Source: Spartobacteria bacterium
GTDB taxonomy: Bacteria > Verrucomicrobiota > Verrucomicrobiia > Chthoniobacterales > Chthoniobacteraceae
Length of the DNA stretch: 64,000 nt
NCBI GenBank assembly: GCA_021324825.1
Contig: JAJPII010000033.1
Coordinates: 186,001 to 250,000, forward strand
Direction: 5' to 3'
Both the position numbers and the translations under genes were made by a program. This document shows, piece by piece, positions 1,487 through 11,592 of this stretch; position 1 is the stretch's first letter; every line of letters begins with the position of its first letter. The notes under the pieces are model-generated. The model searched no databases. It was not told the DNA's origin and saw only the letters and a program-made list of their open reading frames with translations.

Positions 1487-1514
1487 GCCGGGGCCTCGCC
1501 CGCCTTCGTCCTCG

Positions 1515-1541
1515 TTGTAGAGGCGGCTGTGTCAGCCGCCT
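1515..1541 (+). repeat. Dispersed palindromic repeat, copy 1
   Basis: Starts TTGTAGAGGCGGCTG and continues through CAGCCGCCT, with a perfect 8-bp stem GGCGGCTG/CAGCCGCC and a tiny loop. It lies just after the HNH gene. Copy 2 stands 55 bases away in the opposite orientation, so the two form an inverted pair between convergent genes. Confidence 0.8.
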
Positions 1542-1595
1542 AACCAAACTAAAGACCTAAAAATAGCCTGCGCCTTCTCGTTGTTCTCCCTCCTC

Positions 1596-1623
1596 CAGGC
1601 GGCTGGCACAGCCGCCTCTACAA
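1596..1623 (-). repeat. Dispersed palindromic repeat, copy 2 (inverted relative to copy 1)
   Basis: Read on the minus strand it starts TTGTAGAGGCGGCTG and ends CAGCCGCCTG. The TCG preceding TTGTAG is also shared with copies 1 and 6. It lies 9 bases beyond the stop of the small lipoprotein gene. Confidence 0.8.
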
Positions 1624-1632
1624 CGACGGCGG

Positions 1633-1809
1633 TTAGTGAACGACGGTCGTCGTGGTGCTCGACCCGGATCCCGGCGCGACCGCGGATGGAACCGTTTCCT
1701 GCGTGCTGGTCGTCACCGTATGCGTTGGCGGGGGTGTTTCGTCATGCACGCAACCATTCAGCACCGCGGCGGAGACCACGGCCAGTAAGTAGAGGACGAT
1801 TTTTCTCAT
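1633..1809 (-). CDS. Small lipoprotein, 58 residues
   Basis: ATG at 1809, TAA at 1635-1633. The N-terminus MRKIVLYLLAVVSAAVLNGC is a signal peptide ending in a lipobox (LNGC), so Cys20 is the predicted lipidated residue. The remaining 38 residues are Thr/Ser/Pro-rich and probably unstructured. The start lies 51 bases beyond the stop of the receiver-kinase hybrid, on the same strand, so it may be the last gene of that operon. Short entericidin-like or spacer lipoproteins look like this, but no family can be assigned. Confidence 0.65.
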   Translation of the reverse strand: MRKIVLYLLAVVSAAVLNGCVHDETPPPTHTVTTSTQETVPSAVAPGSGSSTTTTVVH

Positions 1810-1860
1810 AACTAAAGAGTCTTCGCGACTGAAGGGGTTTTTGGTCGCCTCCTTCCTCGA

Positions 1861-3138
1861 CTACTTCTCGCAGGCTTGCAGGCAGAGGGTGAACTTGGTC
1901 CCGGCGCCGGCCTGCGTTTGCAGCCGGATCGCTCCCCCCGCTTCCTTGATGAGCCGCTTCACGATGGAGAGGCCGAGGCCCGTCCCCTTGTCGGCGGATT
2001 TGGTCGTGAATTTCTCCTCGAACATCCTGGGCATGATCGACTCGGGTATGCCGGGGCCGCTGTCATGCACGGAGACCAGCAGGAGCGGCGGCTTGTTCAG
2101 GAAAGCCTCCCGATTGATGAGACGCTCCGTGGAGCAGTCGACCATTTCGGCCAGGTTCATCGGCGTCGTGAGCCTCGCGCAACGGACTTCCACGGTATGC
2201 GGTTTCTCCGTGCATTGCAGGGCGTTTAGCGTGAGGTTCAGCAGGATTTGCAGCAAATCGGTGCCGTTGATGTCGGCGACGACGTCTTCCGGCAACCCGT
2301 GAAAGCCGAGCTTGTGCCCCGAGGCGCTAGGGTGGCGGCTCAGGAGTTCCTTCATGTCGGCGAGGATCTGGTTCATCCCGACGCGGGCCCGCTCCCCGGA
2401 AGGGTTGTTATGGAGAAAGCTGAGGTATCGCCGCGAGATTTCGAAGCACCGGGTGACCTGGCCGGTAAGCTTGCCGAGATCGTCTTTGATGATTTCCAAC
2501 TGCTCTCCCTCGACGCTTGCCGCGTCGCGGATCGCCTCGTTGATCATCTCGACATAGCCGGAGATGACGGTGAGCGGGCTGTTGATGTCGTGCAGGACGC
2601 TGGCGTAAATCTCGCCCTTGGTCTTGATGATTTCCTGCTGGAGCTGCTGATCCTGGATTTCCGCCTGGAGGGCGTTGAGCTTCTCGTCGGTCGTGGAAAA
2701 GCTTTCCGCGATGCGGCTTTTTTCCAGGGCGCGCGCGACGGCGGCGCGCATGGAGGTGATGTCGAACGGCTTGTTGAGATAATCGCACGCGCCGTAGCGG
2801 ATGGCGTGGCGCGCGGTCTCCAGCGTCTCGTAAGCGGTGAGCATGATGACGCCGATGGACGGCCTGACCTCCTTGATCTGCGCGAGAAGCTCGATGCCGG
2901 ACATGCCCGCCATGAGGATGTCGAGGATGGCCACCGAGACCTCGTGATCCCGGATGAGTTCCAGGGCGGATTGTCCGTCGCTCGCCAGGAGGACTTCGTA
3001 ATCGTTTTTGAAGACGATCTTCAACGACTGGCGCGGCCCTTCCTCGTCATCGACCACGAGCAGGATCGGTTTCCGGGCCGTCACGGTCGCGGGCGTCCGG
3101 GGCTTAGAAATGGTATCCGACGGTGAGGCTGAGGGCAT
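1861..3138 (-). CDS. Response-regulator receiver / histidine kinase hybrid
   Basis: 425 residues, no membrane segment. Residues 24-140 are a complete receiver domain: acidic pocket DDE at 30-32, phosphoacceptor Asp73 in AILDILMAG, Thr101, and Lys123 in LNKPF. A coiled linker leads to a HisKA-type box with His183 (LHDINSPLTV). The C-terminal HATPase has the N box (LLNLTLNALQ), G1 (DSGPGIP) and G2 (KGTGLGLSIVKRL). It is a soluble kinase whose input is a phosphoryl relay, presumably from the two kinases encoded upstream. Its start overlaps the end of the FadL gene by 35 bases, suggesting translational coupling; a shorter start (GTG before TARKPILL) cannot be excluded. Confidence 0.88.
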   Translation of the reverse strand: MPSASPSDTISKPRTPATVTARKPILLVVDDEEGPRQSLKIVFKNDYEVLLASDGQSALELIRDHEVSVAILDILMAGMSGIELLAQIKEVRPSIGVIMLTAYETLETARHAIRYGACDYLNKPFDITSMRAAVARALEKSRIAESFSTTDEKLNALQAEIQDQQLQQEIIKTKGEIYASVLHDINSPLTVISGYVEMINEAIRDAASVEGEQLEIIKDDLGKLTGQVTRCFEISRRYLSFLHNNPSGERARVGMNQILADMKELLSRHPSASGHKLGFHGLPEDVVADINGTDLLQILLNLTLNALQCTEKPHTVEVRCARLTTPMNLAEMVDCSTERLINREAFLNKPPLLLVSVHDSGPGIPESIMPRMFEEKFTTKSADKGTGLGLSIVKRLIKEAGGAIRLQTQAGAGTKFTLCLQACEK

Positions 3139-4312
3139 GACTCAGGAATCTGTAGGTTCCATCCGCGGGGTTCCCGTTGGAGATCGTCCGGTCTGGGCCG
3201 TAAGCGAGCTGGTACGCCACGTCCCAGGAAAACTGCTTTATATCCTGCCCGACGCCGACGCTGAATATATGCCGGTTCGAGTCGGGGACAATCGGGTTAA
3301 AGCTCGCCGCCGGCACGGAGTTCTCGCTGTAGATATAACCGACGCTTCCCCGCAGCCCGTAGGCGAAGTTGTGCGTCAGGCCCGTCTCCCACATGAAGCT
3401 GGAGTTCCAGTTGAACGGCAGAAACAGTTTGCCGGATTGCTGCGTCAACTGGACGGTCTTGAGGCAGTCCCAATCCGTCCAATCGAGATCGAACTCGAGG
3501 TTCCAGTCTTTCGCGGGCCGCAGGGATATGCCGAAGGTGACCTCCTGCGGAAACGGAATGCCGACCCTGGCGTTCTCGCGGGGAAGATGGACGACCGTGT
3601 CGTTGCCGAGCGCGGCGAACGGCAGCACCCGCGTCTCGGTGTGCCCTTCGAAGATGATGGAGGTGGCGCTGCGGTACGTGACGCCGAAGGAGACCCACTT
3701 GACCGGCTGGAACATGACGCCCGCGTTGAAGCCGATCGCGTCGCCATTGCCGCGGAAACGGAACTGATCCCCCTGGGTGAATATCCCGCGGCGCAGGGTC
3801 ACGTCCCCGTAGTTGACGGTCAGGCCCATCGCGATGGAAAGCTGGTCGCAAATCTTCCAGGCCGCCACGGGGTTCACCGTGGCATAAACCAACTGGGCCT
3901 CCGTCGCCAGGCTGCGGAAAGGCGTGTTGTCGGGGTATTGGATGCCGAAGCCAAAGGGAGCGTAAACCCCGAGGCCGAAGGTGATGGGGAAATTCTTGCT
4001 CGGCTGGTACGTGCAATAGAACTGGGGCGCGGGCTGAAGCGTGTCGGTGTTATCGACGGAAGGGCCGCCGCCGGCGGGGGAGAAATGATCTTTCAGGTAG
4101 ATCATGTAAGTCCCCAGGGTGACATGGACGCCGTCGAGTTGGGTGATGCCCGCCGGATTATAATAGATGGCGGAGGGATTATCCGCCGTGGCCGCGAAAG
4201 CGTCTCCGCGGGCGGTCGCTTCGGCGTCCTGATCGACGATGCGAATGCCGAGCGCGAACACGGAGGCGAGGGGGGCGGCGGCGAGGAGAAGCGAACAGAC
4301 GAGTGACCTCAT
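3104..4312 (-). CDS. FadL/OmpP1/TodX-family outer-membrane transporter
   Basis: 402 residues with a signal peptide (MRSLVCSLLLAAAPLASVFA). The mature N-terminus has the family hallmark around residues 40-56 (ATADNPSAIYYNPAG), the hatch region of FadL. Alternating beta-strand pattern follows, and the chain ends in Phe (VGYHF), the usual assembly signal for outer-membrane barrels. FadL proteins take up long-chain fatty acids or other hydrophobic molecules by lateral diffusion. Placement between sensor kinases and downstream of a ketoacyl synthase suggests a lipid-like substrate or signal; that link is inferred from context. Confidence 0.85.
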   Translation of the reverse strand: MRSLVCSLLLAAAPLASVFALGIRIVDQDAEATARGDAFAATADNPSAIYYNPAGITQLDGVHVTLGTYMIYLKDHFSPAGGGPSVDNTDTLQPAPQFYCTYQPSKNFPITFGLGVYAPFGFGIQYPDNTPFRSLATEAQLVYATVNPVAAWKICDQLSIAMGLTVNYGDVTLRRGIFTQGDQFRFRGNGDAIGFNAGVMFQPVKWVSFGVTYRSATSIIFEGHTETRVLPFAALGNDTVVHLPRENARVGIPFPQEVTFGISLRPAKDWNLEFDLDWTDWDCLKTVQLTQQSGKLFLPFNWNSSFMWETGLTHNFAYGLRGSVGYIYSENSVPAASFNPIVPDSNRHIFSVGVGQDIKQFSWDVAYQLAYGPDRTISNGNPADGTYRFLSHALSLTVGYHF

Positions 4313-4366
4313 GATGAGCAGAAATGGAGCAAGGATCGTGCTAAAGGCGCAAGCCCTTTCTCAAAA

Positions 4367-6364
4367 TCAAGAAGAAAGCGGCAGGGAGATTCGCACCAAT
4401 CCCGGCCGGTCTTTGTTGGAAGCGGGTATTTCGATTTTCCCGCGGTGGTTCTCGATGATCTTGCGGGTGACGGTCAAGCCCAGCCCCAGCCCGACGTTCC
4501 GGGTGGAGAAGAACGGCTCGTTCGCGCGCGCGGCCACTTCGGGAGGGAACCCGGAACCGGAGTCCTGCACCTCGATATTCAGCGAATTGGCGCCGTCTTC
4601 CTTGATGCGGACATCGACTTTCGGCTCCGCCGGGTTCGCCTGGAGCGCGTTCAGCATCACTTCCGAAAACGCGTGGCGCAACGCCTTGTAATCGCCGGCC
4701 ACGAGCCATTTCTCGGCGCTCTTTTCGAAGTTGAGGCGCGCGAGCTTGCCGTGGTGGAAGGTGTTCGCCTCGTGGAAAGCCTCGACGATCACCTCGCCCA
4801 ACTTGATCTTCTCGGCGAAATCGGTCTGGTCGCGCGCGAGGAACACCATCTGGTTCGCGAAGCGCGAGATGCGCTTGACCGAGCCGGACATCGCCTCCGC
4901 CAGCGAAACGCGGAAGTCCGGGTCGGCGAACTTCTCGGCGAGCAACTGCTCGTGCGTCGAGAGGGGGACGAGGGAGTTGCCGATCTCGTGCGCGAGGTGC
5001 TCGGCCATCGACTTCACAAGGCGCAGGTTGGAGCTTTCGATTTCAAGGCGCTGCGCCTTTTCCGTCTGCGTCGTGTCTTCCACGATCAGCAGCGCCGCGT
5101 CCGCGAGCGCCGACCCCTGGGTCCTGAACGGCGCTATCGCCACGCGATACGACGCGTGCGGCGTCTCGTCCATCTCATACCGGAAGGGCTCGGCGGCCAC
5201 CCCCGTCTTCAGGACGGTGAAGACCTTGCTGCCAAGATCCTGCGAGAGATCGGTGAACTCCATACTCTTTTTGGACGGATCGCGAACGAATAAATCCCGC
5301 GCGGCGGAGTTCGCGTGGAGGATCGAGAGATTGTTCCCTATCACCACGCAACCGGAACCGATCTGGCCGAGGATGCTGGCGATCATCGCGTGGCTGGTCC
5401 GCAACTGGTCGTGCAACCGGCTGTTGGTTATCGCCGGGCCGACCTCCTCGAGCATGTGAAAGATGAGGGCCAGTTCCTCGTTCGCATACGGCTCGCCCGT
5501 CAGGCGCCCGTCGAAGACCGCGACCCCGATGAGCGATTCGCGGTCCAGGACCGGGATGGCCACTTCGACTCCCAGCAGCCGGAACTCCCGCGCGGCGTCG
5601 CGGTCGTTGCGCGTCTCGTCGCTGTTGGCGCGCAGGATGCGCCCCTGCCGGTTCAACTGGCTTCCGATGCCGCTCCGCAGGGAAAGGGCGAAGTGGTCCA
5701 GGAAGGATTGATCGATGCCGATGGCGCACGCGGACCGCAGCCAGCGGTCGTCCTTGGCGTGGCCGCCCTCCGCGAGCGGCCCCGGGCTTTTTCGCAGGAA
5801 GACGACGGCCCGGTTGACGCCGAGAATCTCGCGCAGCAGAAAGAGGAAGCGCTTGAGGAGAGCGTCGGCGTCAAGGCCCTTGGAGAGAACCGCGGAAAAT
5901 CTGCGCAAGGATTCAAGCGCGCGGACCTGCTCGCTGTTTCTCCGCTCGGGCCGCGCTTCCATGGACGAAGCGGGCGGCGGGACGACGGTCTCCGCCTCGG
6001 CGCCGGCCTTTGAAAAAAGCCGGTCGAGCAGAGTGTTGAACGTCCGCGCGCGAAACGGCTTTGTCAGGACGTGCGATACTCCCATGAGATACGCGTCCTC
6101 CTCCCACTCCCATTCCTTCGCGTCGGCATAGACGATCATCGGGCACTGCGGCGCGAGGCTCTTCAATTCGCCGATGTTCCGGACGGCGCGCACGTCGCTC
6201 GCCTCGACCTCCAGGATGAGCGCGTCGATGGCGCCGCGCGTCAGCAGCGACTCCGCTTCCGCGACGCCGGTCTTGAAGATGATCTGGTAAACCGAGGGAT
6301 CGAGAACCGACTTTACGGACGAATACAACGCGGGCTGCCTCGCTATAACCAGGAGGGAAATCAT
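4367..6364 (-). CDS. Cytoplasmic sensor histidine kinase with degenerate receiver, GAF and PAS-like domains
   Basis: 665 residues, soluble. Residues 1-118 fold like a receiver (final KPF at 102-104), but the phosphoacceptor position reads LILEVEAS, with Glu52 instead of Asp, and the acidic pair near the N-terminus is absent: a pseudo-receiver. A GAF domain spans about 150-315 and a PAS-like segment about 325-435. The dimerisation box has His459 (HLAHEIGNSLVPL). The HATPase has the N box (EVMLNALQANP), G1 (DSGSGFP) and G2 (VGLGLGLTVTRKI). The start overlaps the upstream kinase stop as ATGA. No DNA-binding partner is encoded nearby. Confidence 0.88.
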   Translation of the reverse strand: MISLLVIARQPALYSSVKSVLDPSVYQIIFKTGVAEAESLLTRGAIDALILEVEASDVRAVRNIGELKSLAPQCPMIVYADAKEWEWEEDAYLMGVSHVLTKPFRARTFNTLLDRLFSKAGAEAETVVPPPASSMEARPERRNSEQVRALESLRRFSAVLSKGLDADALLKRFLFLLREILGVNRAVVFLRKSPGPLAEGGHAKDDRWLRSACAIGIDQSFLDHFALSLRSGIGSQLNRQGRILRANSDETRNDRDAAREFRLLGVEVAIPVLDRESLIGVAVFDGRLTGEPYANEELALIFHMLEEVGPAITNSRLHDQLRTSHAMIASILGQIGSGCVVIGNNLSILHANSAARDLFVRDPSKKSMEFTDLSQDLGSKVFTVLKTGVAAEPFRYEMDETPHASYRVAIAPFRTQGSALADAALLIVEDTTQTEKAQRLEIESSNLRLVKSMAEHLAHEIGNSLVPLSTHEQLLAEKFADPDFRVSLAEAMSGSVKRISRFANQMVFLARDQTDFAEKIKLGEVIVEAFHEANTFHHGKLARLNFEKSAEKWLVAGDYKALRHAFSEVMLNALQANPAEPKVDVRIKEDGANSLNIEVQDSGSGFPPEVAARANEPFFSTRNVGLGLGLTVTRKIIENHRGKIEIPASNKDRPGLVRISLPLSS

Positions 6365-8523
6365 TGAGCGACTTCCACGGCGGCTGACGGTGGGGTGACG
6401 GCCTGTCGGGTTGGCAAATCCACGTTAACAGTGGTGCCTTTTTTCACTTTGCTTGCAAGATTTAAATTGCCGCCGTGCAGATGAACGATCTTGCGGCAGA
6501 TCGAGAGGCCAAGCCCGAAGCCGCGGTTCTCATCCCCGCGGTCCTTGGTGGTGTAGTACGGAGTGAATATGCGGTTGAGGTTTTCCTCCGGTATGCCGTC
6601 CCCGCGGTCGATGATGGTGATGCGCACCCAGTCCCGCTTGGCCGGCGTCTTCGCGAGCCGCCCCGCCTCCACGCGCAATTCCGCGCCTTCCGGCGAGGCG
6701 TCCATGGCGTTGGAAAGCAGGTTTATCAGGAGGCGCTTGATGAGCACCTCGTCCATCTCCACGGAAATATCCGTCGCCGTCTTTACCGCGATCTCGATCT
6801 TCTTGCGCCGAAGCTGTTCCCGCACCATGTCGATCGATTGCCGCACCACTACGTCGAGCCGCCCGAGCTGTATGTTGGGCCGGAGATTCTTGGAGAAGAA
6901 CAGCGCGTCTTTTATATATGCGCGCATCGTTTCGATGTTGCGCATGGCGAGCGGCAGCAACTCGTCTTTCAACGCCTCGAGCGGTATGCCTTCGCCGGCG
7001 AGTTGCAACAGCGTCCACAGCGGGGTCAGCAGGTTGTTGAGATCGTGCGCCATCCCCCTGGACATGCGGCCCAGCAACTCCAGTTCCTGCGCGACCATGA
7101 CCTGGTCCCGCAGCCGCGCCTGGTTGATCATAAGGCTGAGGTTTTTCGCCAGCATGACGAGCAGTTCGATGTCCGTGGCGGTATAAGGATCGCCCGTCGT
7201 CTTAGGGCCGAGCAGCAGCAATCCGAACGGCTCTTCCTGGAAGAAAAACGGGAAGCAGAATTCCGCGTTGAACTGCCCCAGTTGCGCGCGCGCCTCCTTC
7301 TCCGCCTTCCCCTCCTTCGAGACGGAGTACGCGGGGTTCAGGGCTATGTATTCCTTGCCAGCCTCCATCGAGCGGAAGATCGCCGCGCTCCCCTGCAATT
7401 CCGGGTATTGTTGGTCGCCCAGGTCGGGATGCGAACGGAAGAGGGAGAAGACCTGGTTGGTCTCGTCCAGGAGGATGATCTGGTAGGAACGCGCGCAAAC
7501 GACCTTGGCAAGCAGATTGTGCAAATCCGCCAGCAAGGTTTCGGCGCTGCCGTAAAGCGGCATCGCGGCGGTGAAGCTCCGGATCTGGTCGTAGTATTCG
7601 AAGCGGTCTCCCAGGATTCTCTGCTCGATGGTCTCGCTGCCGCGGCCAAAGAGGCGCGGAAAATAAACCGAAGCCATCGTGCCGCTGACCACCAGCACCC
7701 CGAGCGCGCTGAAAAAGGAGCCGCGGGTGAACACGCCCGGGAAAAAAACCGTGATGGTAAGCATGAGCCCGAGGGCGATGACGAAAAGAAAAGCGAGCCG
7801 GACGACGTGCGCCACGACCCGGCTCAGCGTTACTTGAACATCCAGGAGCTGATGTTGCAGAACGCTATAGGCGATGATTATTCCATAGGACACTGCCGCC
7901 AGGCCGCCGTAAGGATAAACGGGGATTTTTGTGAACGGATAGTAATCGACGCCGACTATGGGGAGTATGTCATTCGTGCCGAGGACCGCCAGCAGGGCTT
8001 GTGAAAAGATCAGCGGGTCCAGGCGGGTCCGGTGCATCCGCGGCAGGAGCCTCCGCTTTCTTATGAGGATGCAAATCGCGACGAACATCAGCGCGAAGGA
8101 AAGCTGGGCCACGAATATTCCCGGCCCGGGAATGGCGTACCAGCCGGAAGCCGGTATCAGGCGGACGCCCGATATGAAAAAGTTGGTGAAGTCGGTCGCC
8201 GCGAGAATCCCGAGCGCGCCGTATATATACCAGATGTAGCGCTTGATCGGCACCTGCGCGATGGACAGCGAGATATGGAACAGCAGCGCCGGAATAAATA
8301 TGACGCCGAACCAAAGGATGCGCGCCCACAGGAGGGCGGCCCGCGGATCGTGCACCCTGAACAAATAAAACTGGCCCAGGTTCCAGATCGCGATGGCGAA
8401 GCCGAGGAAGAAGTAGATGCGGTTGACGGTTATCCGCGCGCCGCGGGTGATGACGAAGATCGGCAACAGGATGTTGCAGATGCATCCCATCAGCGGAATA
8501 AACGCCGCGAACTCCGATCTCAT
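6361..8523 (-). CDS. Membrane sensor histidine kinase, 7TM-type input plus GAF
   Basis: 720 residues. Residues 1-285 hold about eight hydrophobic segments, like the 7TM input of kinases such as PrsK. A GAF domain lies at about 310-470 (FCFPFFFQEEPFGLLLLG inside it). The dimerisation box has His493 (GMAHDLNNLLTPL), and the HATPase shows N (LLINLLSNAMDASP), G1 (DRGDGIP) and G2 (GFGLGLSICRKI) boxes. The C-terminus overlaps the next kinase as ATGA and the start overlaps the ketoacyl synthase stop the same way, so the three are surely co-translated. It is the only membrane-embedded sensor of the set and probably its entry point. Confidence 0.88.
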   Translation of the reverse strand: MRSEFAAFIPLMGCICNILLPIFVITRGARITVNRIYFFLGFAIAIWNLGQFYLFRVHDPRAALLWARILWFGVIFIPALLFHISLSIAQVPIKRYIWYIYGALGILAATDFTNFFISGVRLIPASGWYAIPGPGIFVAQLSFALMFVAICILIRKRRLLPRMHRTRLDPLIFSQALLAVLGTNDILPIVGVDYYPFTKIPVYPYGGLAAVSYGIIIAYSVLQHQLLDVQVTLSRVVAHVVRLAFLFVIALGLMLTITVFFPGVFTRGSFFSALGVLVVSGTMASVYFPRLFGRGSETIEQRILGDRFEYYDQIRSFTAAMPLYGSAETLLADLHNLLAKVVCARSYQIILLDETNQVFSLFRSHPDLGDQQYPELQGSAAIFRSMEAGKEYIALNPAYSVSKEGKAEKEARAQLGQFNAEFCFPFFFQEEPFGLLLLGPKTTGDPYTATDIELLVMLAKNLSLMINQARLRDQVMVAQELELLGRMSRGMAHDLNNLLTPLWTLLQLAGEGIPLEALKDELLPLAMRNIETMRAYIKDALFFSKNLRPNIQLGRLDVVVRQSIDMVREQLRRKKIEIAVKTATDISVEMDEVLIKRLLINLLSNAMDASPEGAELRVEAGRLAKTPAKRDWVRITIIDRGDGIPEENLNRIFTPYYTTKDRGDENRGFGLGLSICRKIVHLHGGNLNLASKVKKGTTVNVDLPTRQAVTPPSAAVEVAQ

Positions 8524-9791
8524 CCCGAATAGTTGCGAAGAACCAGGCAGGAATTTTTCCCGCCGAACCCGCTATTGAGATTTAGCGCGATCTTCAACGG
8601 GTAAGGGCGCGATTTCCCGGCTACATAGTCGAGATCGCATTCCTCGCCGGGCTCCTGGTGATTGAGCGTCATCGGAATCTCTTTATAATAAAGCGCGAGA
8701 GCGCAGACGACGGTTTCCAGCGCGCCGGCGCCCGCCATCAGGTGCCCGGTGACGGGTTTGGTGGAGCTGATGGCCACGCGTTTGGCGTGTTCCCCAAAAA
8801 AGGCTTTCACCGCGCGCGTCTCGACCAGGTCATTTGCGTCGGTCGCCGTGCCGTGCGCGTTGATGTAATCGACCTCCGTGCGCTGGATGCGCGCCGCGCG
8901 GATCGCCTTTTCCATGGCGCGAATGTACCCCTTCCCCTGCGGATGCGGCGCGAGCGGGTGGTACGCCTCGCAACTGCGGCCATGCGCGAGCACCTCGGCA
9001 TAAATCCGGGCGCCGCGGCCCAGCGCGTGCGTCAATTCCTCCAGCACGACGAACCCCGCGCCTTCCCCGAGCAGGAATCCGTCGCGCGTTTTGTCGAAGG
9101 GGCGCATCGCGCGCGCGGGTTCGCTGTTGTGCCGGGTCATCACCTTGCTCACGCAGAAGCCTCCCCACGCGGATTCGATCAACGACGCCTCCGCGCCGCC
9201 CGCGATCATCACGTCCACGTCCTCGTTGCGGATCATGGTCAGCGCGTAGCCCATCGCGTCGTTGCCGGAAGCGCTGCTGGAGGAACAGGTGATCGCGTGC
9301 CCCGTGACCCCGAGTTCGTTGGCTATCTCGCCGCTGCCCGCGCCCGCCGCGCCGCTGATTATCCCCGAGATGGTGACGCCGCGGTAACCCTTGCGCAGAA
9401 ACGCCTCCTTCGTCTCATACGCGGCTTCGTTGTTGCTCATGGAGGTCGCCTCGACCACTCCGCACCGGTCGGGATCGATCTTGGAGAAATCAATCTTCGC
9501 GTCCTCCGCGGCGAGCCGGGCCGCCGCCACGCTGTATTGCAACGAGAGGCTCAGCCGCCGCGCCGTCTTCGGGTCCATGTAACGCGCTGCGTCGAAGTCC
9601 TTGATCTCGGCGGCGACCTTGGAAGGCGTCTGGGAAACGTCGAAGCGCGTCACGGGACACGCCGCGCTTTTCCCCTCGCGGATGCTCGTCCAGAAAGTAT
9701 CCAGGTTCTTCCCGCTGGCGGCCATGACGCCCATGCCGGTCACTACCACGCGCCGGTGGCGGTTCATCGAATCTGGAGCGTCGTTATACAC
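8520..9791 (-). CDS. fabF: Beta-ketoacyl-ACP synthase II-like (FabF/KAS) condensing enzyme
   Basis: 423 residues, the normal length for FabF. The thiolase-fold triad is complete: Cys169 (HAITCSSSSASG), His313 (NAHGTATDAND) and His350 (TKPVTGHLMAGAGALE). The enzyme condenses malonyl-ACP with an acyl chain. The start is a GTG at 9791 preceded by AAGGGA; an ATG at 9767 (MNRHRRVVVTGMG) is the alternative. Unusually, no acyl carrier protein, FabG or FabD is adjacent; instead the stop overlaps a sensor kinase. It could be the general FabF or a dedicated KAS making a signalling or secreted lipid. The catalytic assignment is firm, the pathway is not. Confidence 0.88.
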   Translation of the reverse strand: MYNDAPDSMNRHRRVVVTGMGVMAASGKNLDTFWTSIREGKSAACPVTRFDVSQTPSKVAAEIKDFDAARYMDPKTARRLSLSLQYSVAAARLAAEDAKIDFSKIDPDRCGVVEATSMSNNEAAYETKEAFLRKGYRGVTISGIISGAAGAGSGEIANELGVTGHAITCSSSSASGNDAMGYALTMIRNEDVDVMIAGGAEASLIESAWGGFCVSKVMTRHNSEPARAMRPFDKTRDGFLLGEGAGFVVLEELTHALGRGARIYAEVLAHGRSCEAYHPLAPHPQGKGYIRAMEKAIRAARIQRTEVDYINAHGTATDANDLVETRAVKAFFGEHAKRVAISSTKPVTGHLMAGAGALETVVCALALYYKEIPMTLNHQEPGEECDLDYVAGKSRPYPLKIALNLNSGFGGKNSCLVLRNYSG

Positions 9792-9832: not shown

Positions 9833-10186
9833 TTATTTGTCATACTTGACCAATTCCACCGTCTCCGTCACCAGGAGGGTATGCACGTAGTGCGTCGTAT
9901 GGCCGCAAAAGGAAATCTCATCCTCCATGACGGCCTTCAACTCCGGCGTCCCCTGGCATTTGAAAAGCGCTTCCTCGGATTCCCACCACGTTTCGACAAT
10001 CCCGTCGATCGGGGCGTCCGCGTTCTCATATTCCGCGCGCGGCACCGGGACGACGTGGTGCTGTGAATATTTGACGATGCCCGGCAGCTTGGCGACCAGC
10101 GGGCCGTGGACATTTTTCCAGTAAGCGTGGAATTCTTCAGCCGACATTTCCGGCTTCTTTCGCAGGACGACGAGACATTTGATCAT
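9833..10186 (-). CDS. EthD-domain protein
   Basis: 117 residues. The opening (IKCLVVLRKKPEMSAEEFHAYW) followed by HGPLVAKLPGIVKYSQHH is characteristic of the EthD family, small dimeric alpha-beta barrel (ferredoxin-like) proteins. Some members accompany cytochrome P450 systems; others act in aromatic polyketide or ether metabolism. No motif identifies a substrate. It lies 10 bases after the HIT gene and 41 bases before the KAS gene on the same strand, so it may share their transcript. A link to KAS-derived lipids is only positional. Confidence 0.75.
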   Translation of the reverse strand: MIKCLVVLRKKPEMSAEEFHAYWKNVHGPLVAKLPGIVKYSQHHVVPVPRAEYENADAPIDGIVETWWESEEALFKCQGTPELKAVMEDEISFCGHTTHYVHTLLVTETVELVKYDK

Positions 10187-10196
10187 AAATGGAATT

Positions 10197-10535
10197 TCAT
10201 CCGGGAGGCCAGGCGAGCGGGCGCTTGCCCAGCAGGTGAATGTGCAGGTGGGGGACGGATTCTCCGGCGTCCGGCCCGTTGTTGATGACGAGGCGGTATC
10301 CGCTGTGGAGAACGCCCGTCAGCTCCGCGACTTTCCGCGACGCCAGCAGCAGCCGGCCCAGCAGCCCGGCGTCGGCGTCCCCCGCGTCGGCGATGCGCGG
10401 TATGGGCCGCTTCGGCACGATGAGAACGTGAACGGGCGCCTGCTGGTTCACGTCGTGGAAGGCGATGAGGTCGTCCTCCTCGTAAACGATCGCCGCCGGG
10501 ATTTCGCGGTTGGAGATTTTTTCGAAAAGCGTCAT
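10197..10535 (-). CDS. HIT-family nucleotide hydrolase/transferase
   Basis: 112 residues from the ATG at 10535, which overlaps the upstream stop as ATGA. The histidine triad HLHIHLLG (residues ~96-103) is intact, and the N-terminal segment FEKISNREIPAAIVYEEDD is typical of the HINT/PKCI-like branch. Members hydrolyse purine nucleoside phosphoramidates such as AMP-lysine and aminoacyl-AMP. Cytoplasmic dimer expected. An upstream-extended frame to 10682 exists but carries no family sequence and overlaps the previous gene out of frame, so the shorter start is preferred. Confidence 0.88.
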   Translation of the reverse strand: MTLFEKISNREIPAAIVYEEDDLIAFHDVNQQAPVHVLIVPKRPIPRIADAGDADAGLLGRLLLASRKVAELTGVLHSGYRLVINNGPDAGESVPHLHIHLLGKRPLAWPPG

Positions 10536-11092
10536 GAGACGGAGAGAATAAAGCTGCGCGACGGGTTGACGGCGCTGATGTGCTCGCGGACGAAGGCGAC
10601 AATCTCCTCCCGCAGCGAATCGCACCCGCGGCTCCAGATTTTCCGGGAGCGCAGCCGCTTCACGCAATGTTCCAAACCCCACAATTCCACATGGGTTGTC
10701 CGGGGCGTCACCAGTTCCTGGAGCCGCCGCCCCAGGATTTCAAAGAACGCCAGTTCATAGCCGTCCGCCGCCTCGTTCGCCACTTCGCTCAGCGAGAGTT
10801 TCGCGGGCGGCGCGTCGGGAACGAAATGCAGGGCGACCTCCGCGTAGCCGATGACCTGGAGGATGTTGCGCACCGCCGCCGACAGGCGCTCGACGCCGAC
10901 GGTCGTGGCCTCGAACCCCGCGAGCAGATACGTCGTGACGCTTTCGGCCACGTGCTCCGCCAGCCACCATTCCTGGTAGCCCGCCCTCGACGCCGCGCGG
11001 CGCAGGGAACGCACCAGCCAATCCGTCTGGAACGCGACGAGACGCCCCTCGTCGAATTGCACCAGCGGAAAGTCGTCTTTGAGAGCGATCAT
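10532..11092 (-). CDS. Conserved protein with ATP-cone-like N-terminus, downstream of nrdR
   Basis: 186 residues from an ATG at 11092 that overlaps the nrdR stop as ATGA. Residues ~8-88 follow the ATP-cone layout: an F-DEGR-x-VAF opening, a helix with SLRRAASRAG, then VAESVTTYL, then VERLSAAVRNIL and the closing IGYAEVALHF, close to the ending of the NrdR and class I/III ribonucleotide reductase cones. The C-terminal half (LWGLEHCVKRLRSRKIWSRG) is unrecognised. I infer a nucleotide-sensing partner of NrdR or of a ribonucleotide reductase. The family is not identified and the cone call needs profile confirmation. Confidence 0.6.
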   Translation of the reverse strand: MIALKDDFPLVQFDEGRLVAFQTDWLVRSLRRAASRAGYQEWWLAEHVAESVTTYLLAGFEATTVGVERLSAAVRNILQVIGYAEVALHFVPDAPPAKLSLSEVANEAADGYELAFFEILGRRLQELVTPRTTHVELWGLEHCVKRLRSRKIWSRGCDSLREEIVAFVREHISAVNPSRSFILSVS

Positions 11093-11592
11093 CGGTTTCC
11101 GGCCGGTTCGAAAAGCTCGGACTGCCGCACATCCCGCCTCGGCTTCCGCTCGAGGGACTGTATCTCTTCTATAAAGGCGCCCACGTCCTGGAACTGCCGG
11201 TAGACCGAGGCGTAACGGACATAAGCCACTTCGTCGATCTGGTGCAGTTTCTCCATCACCTTCGTTCCTATCGTGAGCGACTTGACCTCGCGGGGATGAT
11301 TCGTCTCCAAATCGTGGATGATCTCCTCGACGGCCTTCTCCATTTTCTCGATGGCCACGGGCCGTTTCTCGCACGCCTTGCTGATTCCCAGGAAAAGCTT
11401 GTGCCGGTCAAACGGTTCGCCCCTGCCGTCGCGCTTAATGACCCGGATATCCGCCCGGTCAACCTGTTCATAAGTCGTAAACCGGTGTTCGCATACAAGA
11501 CACTCCCGCCTGCGCCGGATGGAGACGCCATCCTTCGATAATCGCGAATCGATCACCTTGTCTTCGACCGCACCGCACTTGGGACAGCGCAT
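11089..11592 (-). CDS. nrdR: Transcriptional repressor NrdR
   Basis: 167 residues, usual length about 150-165. Zinc ribbon at the N-terminus: CPKCG at 3-7 and CLVCEHRF at 32-39, with the RRRREC signature between them. ATP-cone from ~48 to 140 (VIKRDGRGEPFDRHKL to VRYASVYRQF). NrdR senses the ATP/dATP balance and represses ribonucleotide reductase operons by binding NrdR boxes. A promoter whose spacer is a good NrdR-box match lies 32 bases upstream, pointing to autoregulation. It is followed immediately by an ATP-cone-like gene. Confidence 0.95.
   Translation of the reverse strand: MRCPKCGAVEDKVIDSRLSKDGVSIRRRRECLVCEHRFTTYEQVDRADIRVIKRDGRGEPFDRHKLFLGISKACEKRPVAIEKMEKAVEEIIHDLETNHPREVKSLTIGTKVMEKLHQIDEVAYVRYASVYRQFQDVGAFIEEIQSLERKPRRDVRQSELFEPAGNR

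What the first reader, a model, noticed from the sequence alone, without database searches (positions are those of the whole stretch)
1633..9791. Operon joining a ketoacyl synthase, a FadL barrel and three histidine kinases, with no DNA-binding regulator
Seen: fabF-like (8520-9791), 7TM-GAF kinase (6361-8523), pseudo-receiver-GAF-PAS kinase (4367-6364), FadL (3104-4312), receiver-kinase (1861-3138) and a small lipoprotein (1633-1809) run on one strand; three junctions overlap (4, 4 and 35 bases) and FadL follows a kinase by 54. The only intact receiver (Asp73) is itself fused to a kinase, so phosphate flow would end inside the set or go to an unlinked regulator. Known: FadL passes hydrophobic molecules and KAS builds acyl chains. 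Inference: the unit makes or imports a lipid-like signal and senses it, a circuit I do not recognise as described.
Basis: partly seen in the sequence, partly recalled or inferred. Interest (0 to 1): 0.72.

Follow-up and report, generated by a model that had tools for sequence, protein, structure and literature searches.

The report
Lipid-signal kinase cassette of Verrucomicrobiota
Five neighbouring genes in a verrucomicrobial genome (a fatty-acid-synthase-like enzyme with a changed active site, an outer-membrane lipid channel and three signalling kinases) form a set kept together across much of the phylum, and they look like an undescribed circuit for sensing, and perhaps making, a lipid signal.

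Summary
In detail: all six ORFs and junctions are where stated. The unit is not confined to this genome. KAS-HKA(7TM)-HKB recurs in 28 of 41 named Verrucomicrobiota loci, with FadL-REC-HK appended in several, including cultured Chthoniobacter flavus, and the short overlaps recur. The KAS is not the housekeeping FabF. Three findings change the interpretation. (1) The window KAS has Ser173 where FabF has its nucleophilic Cys; His, Lys, His and gate Phe are kept, and Ser is fixed across one large clade. A deep homologue clade keeps Cys but loses one or both His. (2) Most relatives carry an ICMT-family methyltransferase just upstream; this genome has none, and an EthD gene sits there. In five genomes KAS is replaced by a LuxD-like acyltransferase fused to a methyltransferase, found in 384 genomes only there. 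(3) Two distant versions include an NtrC-type regulator. The recurring theme (acyl enzyme, methyltransferase, membrane kinase, FadL, REC-kinase) resembles in logic the Ralstonia Phc quorum-sensing system. The lipid itself, the phosphate flow and the output are inferred. The small lipoprotein is not part of the set.

The parts
8520..9791 (-). KAS II-like (FabF-fold) protein; likely start ATG 9767; FabF nucleophile Cys replaced by Ser173, with His313, Lys345, His350 and Phe409 kept
6361..8523 (-). HKA: 7TM-GAF-HisKA-HATPase membrane histidine kinase, catalytic boxes intact in all orthologues
4367..6364 (-). HKB: pseudo-receiver-GAF-(PAS)-kinase, soluble; His459 and N and G boxes intact
3104..4312 (-). 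FadL/OMPP1-family outer-membrane channel
1861..3138 (-). REC-HK: intact receiver (Asp73) fused to a kinase, no DNA-binding domain; 35-nt overlap with FadL
9833..10186 (-). EthD-domain protein in the position where relatives carry the ICMT methyltransferase; membership uncertain
10197..10682 (-). HIT-family gene, syntenic upstream flank in Chthoniobacteraceae (flank, not functional part)
11089..11592 (-). NrdR, syntenic upstream flank (not functional part)

Best explanation
The five genes (KAS, HKA, HKB, FadL, REC-HK) are one sensory unit for an acyl-derived (lipid-like) signal. Shown: the cassette is conserved and tightly packed, and the KAS position is filled by enzymes of acyl chemistry, usually with a methyltransferase. 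Inferred: the acyl enzyme takes an acyl group from a carrier and (with ICMT or another methyltransferase in relatives) makes or modifies a hydrophobic molecule; FadL lets it through the outer membrane; the 7TM kinase HKA senses it and HKB adds a cytosolic GAF/PAS input; one or both phosphorylate Asp73 of the REC-HK, which switches that kinase on (as in LvrB) and passes phosphate to an unlinked regulator, probably of NtrC type as in the distant versions that encode one in the operon. In the window genome the KAS most likely acts as an acyl-transferring or acyl-binding Ser protein rather than a standard condensing enzyme, and no ICMT is present, so this strain may only listen to the signal or make a non-methylated form of it.
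For: Conserved order: 28 of 41 named loci have KAS-HKA-HKB; FadL-REC-HK follow in L073, L074 (C. flavus), L075, L078, L085, and in L090 where the contig begins in HKA. Overlaps: ICMT>KAS, KAS>HKA and HKA>HKB are mostly -4, and FadL>REC-HK overlaps by 11-35 nt in six of seven loci. Module KAS form a clade apart from housekeeping KAS (99*), and only 2 of 42 non-module KAS genes have a kinase- or receiver-like neighbour. An ICMT gene adjoins KAS in most relatives. In f24/f21 genomes a LuxD-like acyltransferase (PF02273)-methyltransferase fusion takes the KAS place beside HKA and opposite HKB-FadL(-REC-HK); it occurs in 5 of 384 class genomes, all at this locus. L175 holds the whole set plus NtrC. 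The distant REC-HK finds the module REC-HK as best match in 3 of 3 genomes. Kinase residues are kept throughout. Precedents: FadL aids long-chain AHL perception (PMC5977203); Phc makes a fatty-acid methyl ester and includes a REC-HK without DNA-binding domain (PMC8578825); the Ser-nucleophile ketosynthase DpsC self-acylates and transfers acyl to ACP (PMC12664062).
Against: No molecule, ligand or phosphotransfer has been measured. The window genome lacks ICMT, so production of a methylated signal there is not supported. FadL and REC-HK are absent beside the cassette in genus g6, and some loci have HKB-REC-HK without KAS, so the parts are separable. KAS catalytic residues erode in f4/f8, which fits sensing better than synthesis there. 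A single transcript is inferred from spacing only.
Confidence: 0.5

Rival explanations
1. Intracellular acyl-status sensor: the KAS is a non-condensing relative that binds acyl-ACP and reports fatty-acid supply to HKB/HKA by protein contact; FadL is a regulated or co-sensed importer. No extracellular signal is made.
For: Catalytic residues change in different ways in different lineages (Ser-His-His; Cys-His-Asn; Cys-Tyr-Asn; Cys-Trp-Ile), while the gene stays locked to the kinases. Basic residues in the KxxRR region, which I take for the ACP-docking edge, are partly kept. HKB is cytosolic with GAF/PAS.
Against: Other lineages keep a full Cys-His-Lys-His-Phe set (8 of 23; also L195). The linked methyltransferases and the acyltransferase-methyltransferase swap point to chemistry, not only binding.
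Confidence: 0.25
2. Nutrient-response system: the kinases sense an outside hydrophobic substrate taken up by FadL and control its use; KAS, ICMT or the acyltransferase process the substrate. Not cell-cell signalling.
For: The kinases' best curated models include AtoS and the linked regulator is AtoC/NtrC-like; AMP-ligase-like genes lie next to two distant versions.
Against: AtoS and AtoC cut-offs are not met. I saw no beta-oxidation or degradation genes travelling with the cassette. The acyl enzymes are of biosynthetic type.
Confidence: 0.15
3. Chance packing: a redundant fabF copy and unrelated kinases happen to share an operon.
For: Kinase genes are abundant in these genomes.
Against: Recurrence across families and orders with shared overlaps, a distinct KAS clade, and only 2 of 42 control KAS genes next to kinase- or receiver-like genes.
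Confidence: 0.02

Closest known systems
Phc quorum-sensing operon phcBSRQ of Ralstonia (PMC8578825, PMC11960443)
   Same: Methyltransferase (here in relatives), a sensor kinase and a REC-HK protein lacking a DNA-binding domain; in some versions also a single-receiver protein nearby
   Different: Here a KAS or LuxD-like acyltransferase and a FadL channel are built in, there is a second GAF/PAS kinase, the methyltransferase is ICMT-family or fused to the acyltransferase, and the window genome has no ICMT; sequence orthology to Phc proteins was not tested
LvrA/LvrB of Leptospira; REC-controlled histidine kinases (PMC13269768, PMC5863495)
   Same: REC-HK with intact receiver, no DNA-binding domain, in an operon with another kinase; output through an unlinked partner
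   Different: LvrB model cut-off is not met (98 of 500 bits); partner kinases are 7TM-GAF and pseudo-REC-GAF-PAS; acyl enzyme and FadL linked
FabF / KAS II
   Same: Two KAS domains, His-Lys-His and GFGG gate; 41-42% identity to the genome's own FabF copies
   Different: Ser173 in place of the nucleophilic Cys; separate clade; operon with kinases
DpsC-type Ser ketosynthases (PMC12664062)
   Different: DpsC is a KAS III-type priming enzyme with a Ser-His-Asp triad; the window protein is KAS II-type with Ser-His-His
FadL in rhizobial long-chain AHL perception (PMC5977203)
   Same: FadL-family channel aiding perception of a lipid signal
   Different: That system is AHL-based, without a linked kinase cascade
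PrsK/PrsR of the XrtA/PEP-CTERM system
   Same: PrsK model matches HKA residues 216-704
   Different: 115.6 of 300 bits, cut-off not met; no exosortase genes seen in the cassette

Membership tests
FabF / beta-ketoacyl-ACP synthase II | Nucleophilic Cys | tested here: not met
   Ser173 in alignment to FabF chains of known structure and to 20 of 20 paralogues
FabF / beta-ketoacyl-ACP synthase II | His, Lys, His and gate Phe | tested here: met
   His313, Lys345, His350, Phe409
FabF / beta-ketoacyl-ACP synthase II | TIGR03150 equivalog cut-off 493.75 bits | tested here: not met
   440.4 bits; the broader NF005589 cut-off (387) is met with 427.8
FadL/OMPP1 family | PF03349 cut-off | tested here: met
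   168.4 against 29.7 bits
FadL equivalog (long-chain fatty acid transporter) | NF007988 cut-off 585 bits | tested here: not met
   59.1 bits
REC-controlled histidine kinase (LvrB type) | Intact receiver plus DHp plus CA, no DNA-binding domain | tested here: met
REC-controlled histidine kinase (LvrB type) | Receiver phosphorylation activates the kinase | not testable with these tools
   needs protein assays
Phc-type fatty-acid methyl ester quorum sensing | Linked methyltransferase that makes the signal | tested here: not met
   No ICMT in the window genome and no methyltransferase in the window's cassette; ICMT or fused methyltransferase present in relatives
Phc-type fatty-acid methyl ester quorum sensing | Sensor kinase plus REC-HK without DNA-binding domain in one operon | tested here: met
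Phc-type fatty-acid methyl ester quorum sensing | Sequence orthology to PhcS/PhcR; LysR regulator PhcA | not tested
   no Phc sequences were at hand
Phc-type fatty-acid methyl ester quorum sensing | A secreted fatty-acid methyl ester is the signal | not testable with these tools
   needs lipid chemistry
PrsK (XrtA/PEP-CTERM) | TIGR02916 cut-off 300 bits | tested here: not met
   115.6 bits

The most novel reading that the evidence does not exclude
A previously undescribed lipid quorum-sensing family of Verrucomicrobiota: an interchangeable acyl enzyme plus methyltransferase makes a methylated acyl signal, FadL returns it, and a 7TM kinase, a GAF/PAS kinase and a REC-kinase read it; in one large clade the synthase is a KAS II with a Ser nucleophile.
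Probability: 0.33. Interest if true: 0.82.

Novelty: new variant of a known kind. Interest (0 to 1): 0.62.

Why it matters
I know of no dedicated lipid signalling system described for Verrucomicrobiota, and the paper searches found none for this gene set. The cassette is conserved, occurs in a cultured species (Chthoniobacter flavus Ellin428) and makes direct predictions: a lipid dependent on KAS/ICMT, FadL-dependent sensing and phosphate transfer to the REC-kinase. The conserved Cys-to-Ser change in a KAS II clade is also a natural experiment on ketosynthase chemistry.

Tried and rejected
An AlphaFold model of the KAS from a 12-row alignment was poor (mean pLDDT 54) and was not used or searched. 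A first tree (LG+I+G4) put the distant KAS clade outside FabF plus module; the mixture-model tree joined it to the module clade with support 81, not starred, so a single origin of all module KAS is favoured but not shown. HKB of the distant version had the module HKB as best hit in two genomes but second in the window genome. The window KAS Cys169 was at first taken for the nucleophile and rejected after alignment. A unique orthologue of the linked NtrC regulator was sought in the window genome and not found: at least seven similar ones. The lipoprotein was rejected as a part. No literature describing the cassette was found. Sigma-70 promoter and terminator scans did not exceed shuffles.

Full report
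Observation. Pfam confirms the domain calls, with HKB's receiver below cut-off. Sigma-70 promoter-like and terminator-like sites in the region are no more frequent than in shuffles. The KAS may start at ATG 9767.

Neighbourhood. Upstream on the same strand lie EthD (9833-10186), a HIT gene, an ATP-cone-like gene and NrdR. In Chthoniobacteraceae the NrdR-HIT flank is shared, and in most relatives an ICMT-family methyltransferase lies between HIT and KAS (Pfam ICMT 72.3 and 69.4 bits). The window genome has no ICMT by two searches; the family search rang in control genomes. EthD occupies the place.

Distribution. A scan with an HKB alignment gave 41 Verrucomicrobiota loci and one unrelated kinase, among them Chthoniobacter flavus Ellin428. 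KAS-HKA-HKB is contiguous in 28; FadL-REC-HK follow in part of the window's family and in L085, and in L090 where the contig starts within HKA; HKB or HKB-REC-HK stands without KAS in at least six (the L085 KAS was recovered). FadL of C. flavus is seen in L043. The 4-nt overlaps and the FadL/REC-HK overlap recur. As a control, of 42 non-module KAS genes only two show a kinase- or receiver-like neighbour within 1.5 kb.

The KAS. The window genome has two further FabF-like proteins with Cys-His-His and a more distant one. Module KAS form one clade (99*). Against Bacillus FabF the nucleophile aligns with Ser173. In a dereplicated set, 15 of 23 module KAS have Ser and 8 Cys, one change on the tree; all keep His, Lys, His, Phe. 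The Ser state is thus old and kept, not a fresh loss. A second clade, in families f4, f8, f14 and f30, keeps Cys and Lys but shows His/Asn, Tyr/Asn, Trp/Asn or Trp/Ile in the two His positions and Leu, Ile or Met for the gate Phe. Cys-His-Asn is the triad of FabH (PMC12664062), so the f14 and f30 proteins could still be active; the Tyr and Trp forms are less likely to condense.

The distant versions. In f8 and f4 the order is KAS-HKA-HKB with a divergent REC-HK. In L175 (f14) KAS-HKA-HKB-NtrC lie opposite FadL-REC-HK, so the entire set recurs with a DNA-binding regulator. L178 (f30) has KAS-HKA-HKB-NtrC followed by an AMP-ligase-like gene. Reciprocal searches link REC-HK (best in 3 of 3 genomes) and mostly HKB.

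Replacement of the KAS. In f24 and f21 genomes HKB-FadL (and REC-HK) lie opposite an operon that begins with a LuxD-like acyltransferase fused to a methyltransferase, followed by a 7TM-GAF kinase. Ser121, Asp220 and His248 are invariant and sit where I recall the LuxD triad. This fusion occurs in 5 of 384 class genomes, all at this locus. In the same family L195 keeps ICMT-KAS-HKA-HKB-FadL-REC-HK, with Cys in the KAS. FadL of the two types is 39% identical. So two unrelated enzyme pairs, each combining acyl and methyl chemistry, fill the same slot.

Kinases. The phospho-acceptor His and the N box are kept in every row with sequence there, for all three kinases, as is the full receiver site of REC-HK; HKB's receiver lacks the acidic pair. 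LvrB, the studied REC-controlled kinase, is switched on by receiver phosphorylation and passes phosphate to a separate partner (PMC13269768). Phosphate flow here is inferred by that analogy.

Mechanism and comparison. The best-supported reading is a lipid-signal sensory unit, similar in logic to Phc, with FadL as entry. Shown: conservation, spacing, residue states and enzyme swap. Inferred: the ligand, its synthesis, the sensing kinase, the phosphate route and the output. Failing the Phc methyltransferase feature in the window genome lowers the claim of membership, not the resemblance in logic. Main rivals are an intracellular acyl-status sensor, favoured by the eroded active sites of f4 and f8, and a nutrient-response system.

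Noticed in passing
window 1507-1631; also 15344, 30172, 37248, 60850: Dispersed GTAGAGGCGGCTG-type palindromes (8 pattern matches, 0.01 expected), REP-like; a 35-nt inverted pair follows the lipoprotein gene.
   Followed up: partly
G000 contig C9 61911-91750 (L005-L008, L010, L011): Several KAS domains in very long ORFs suggest a modular polyketide synthase cluster in the window genome.
   Followed up: no
L178 2288-3556 and L062 14471-16696: AMP-ligase-like genes (DVU_1553-family-like, below cut-off) next to two distant cassettes.
   Followed up: partly
L066 15455-17881 and other f8 loci: A conserved protein of about 808 aa that looks to me like a lantibiotic dehydratase-type protein lies beyond the divergent REC-HK in f8 genomes.
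   Followed up: no
L066 6578-7024, L067 14086-14532: A single-receiver protein lies downstream of HKB and an aldolase gene in f8, a possible PhcQ-like phosphate acceptor.
   Followed up: no
L143 (G041:C10): A FabF-like paralogue of another type also lies beside a histidine kinase.
   Followed up: no
L057 5241-10710: In G016 the KAS and HKB reading frames are each split, by frameshift or assembly error.
   Followed up: no
L058 (= L109): An HKA-HKB-REC-HK set without KAS in G048, a genome that holds a second HKB on another contig (L056).
   Followed up: no
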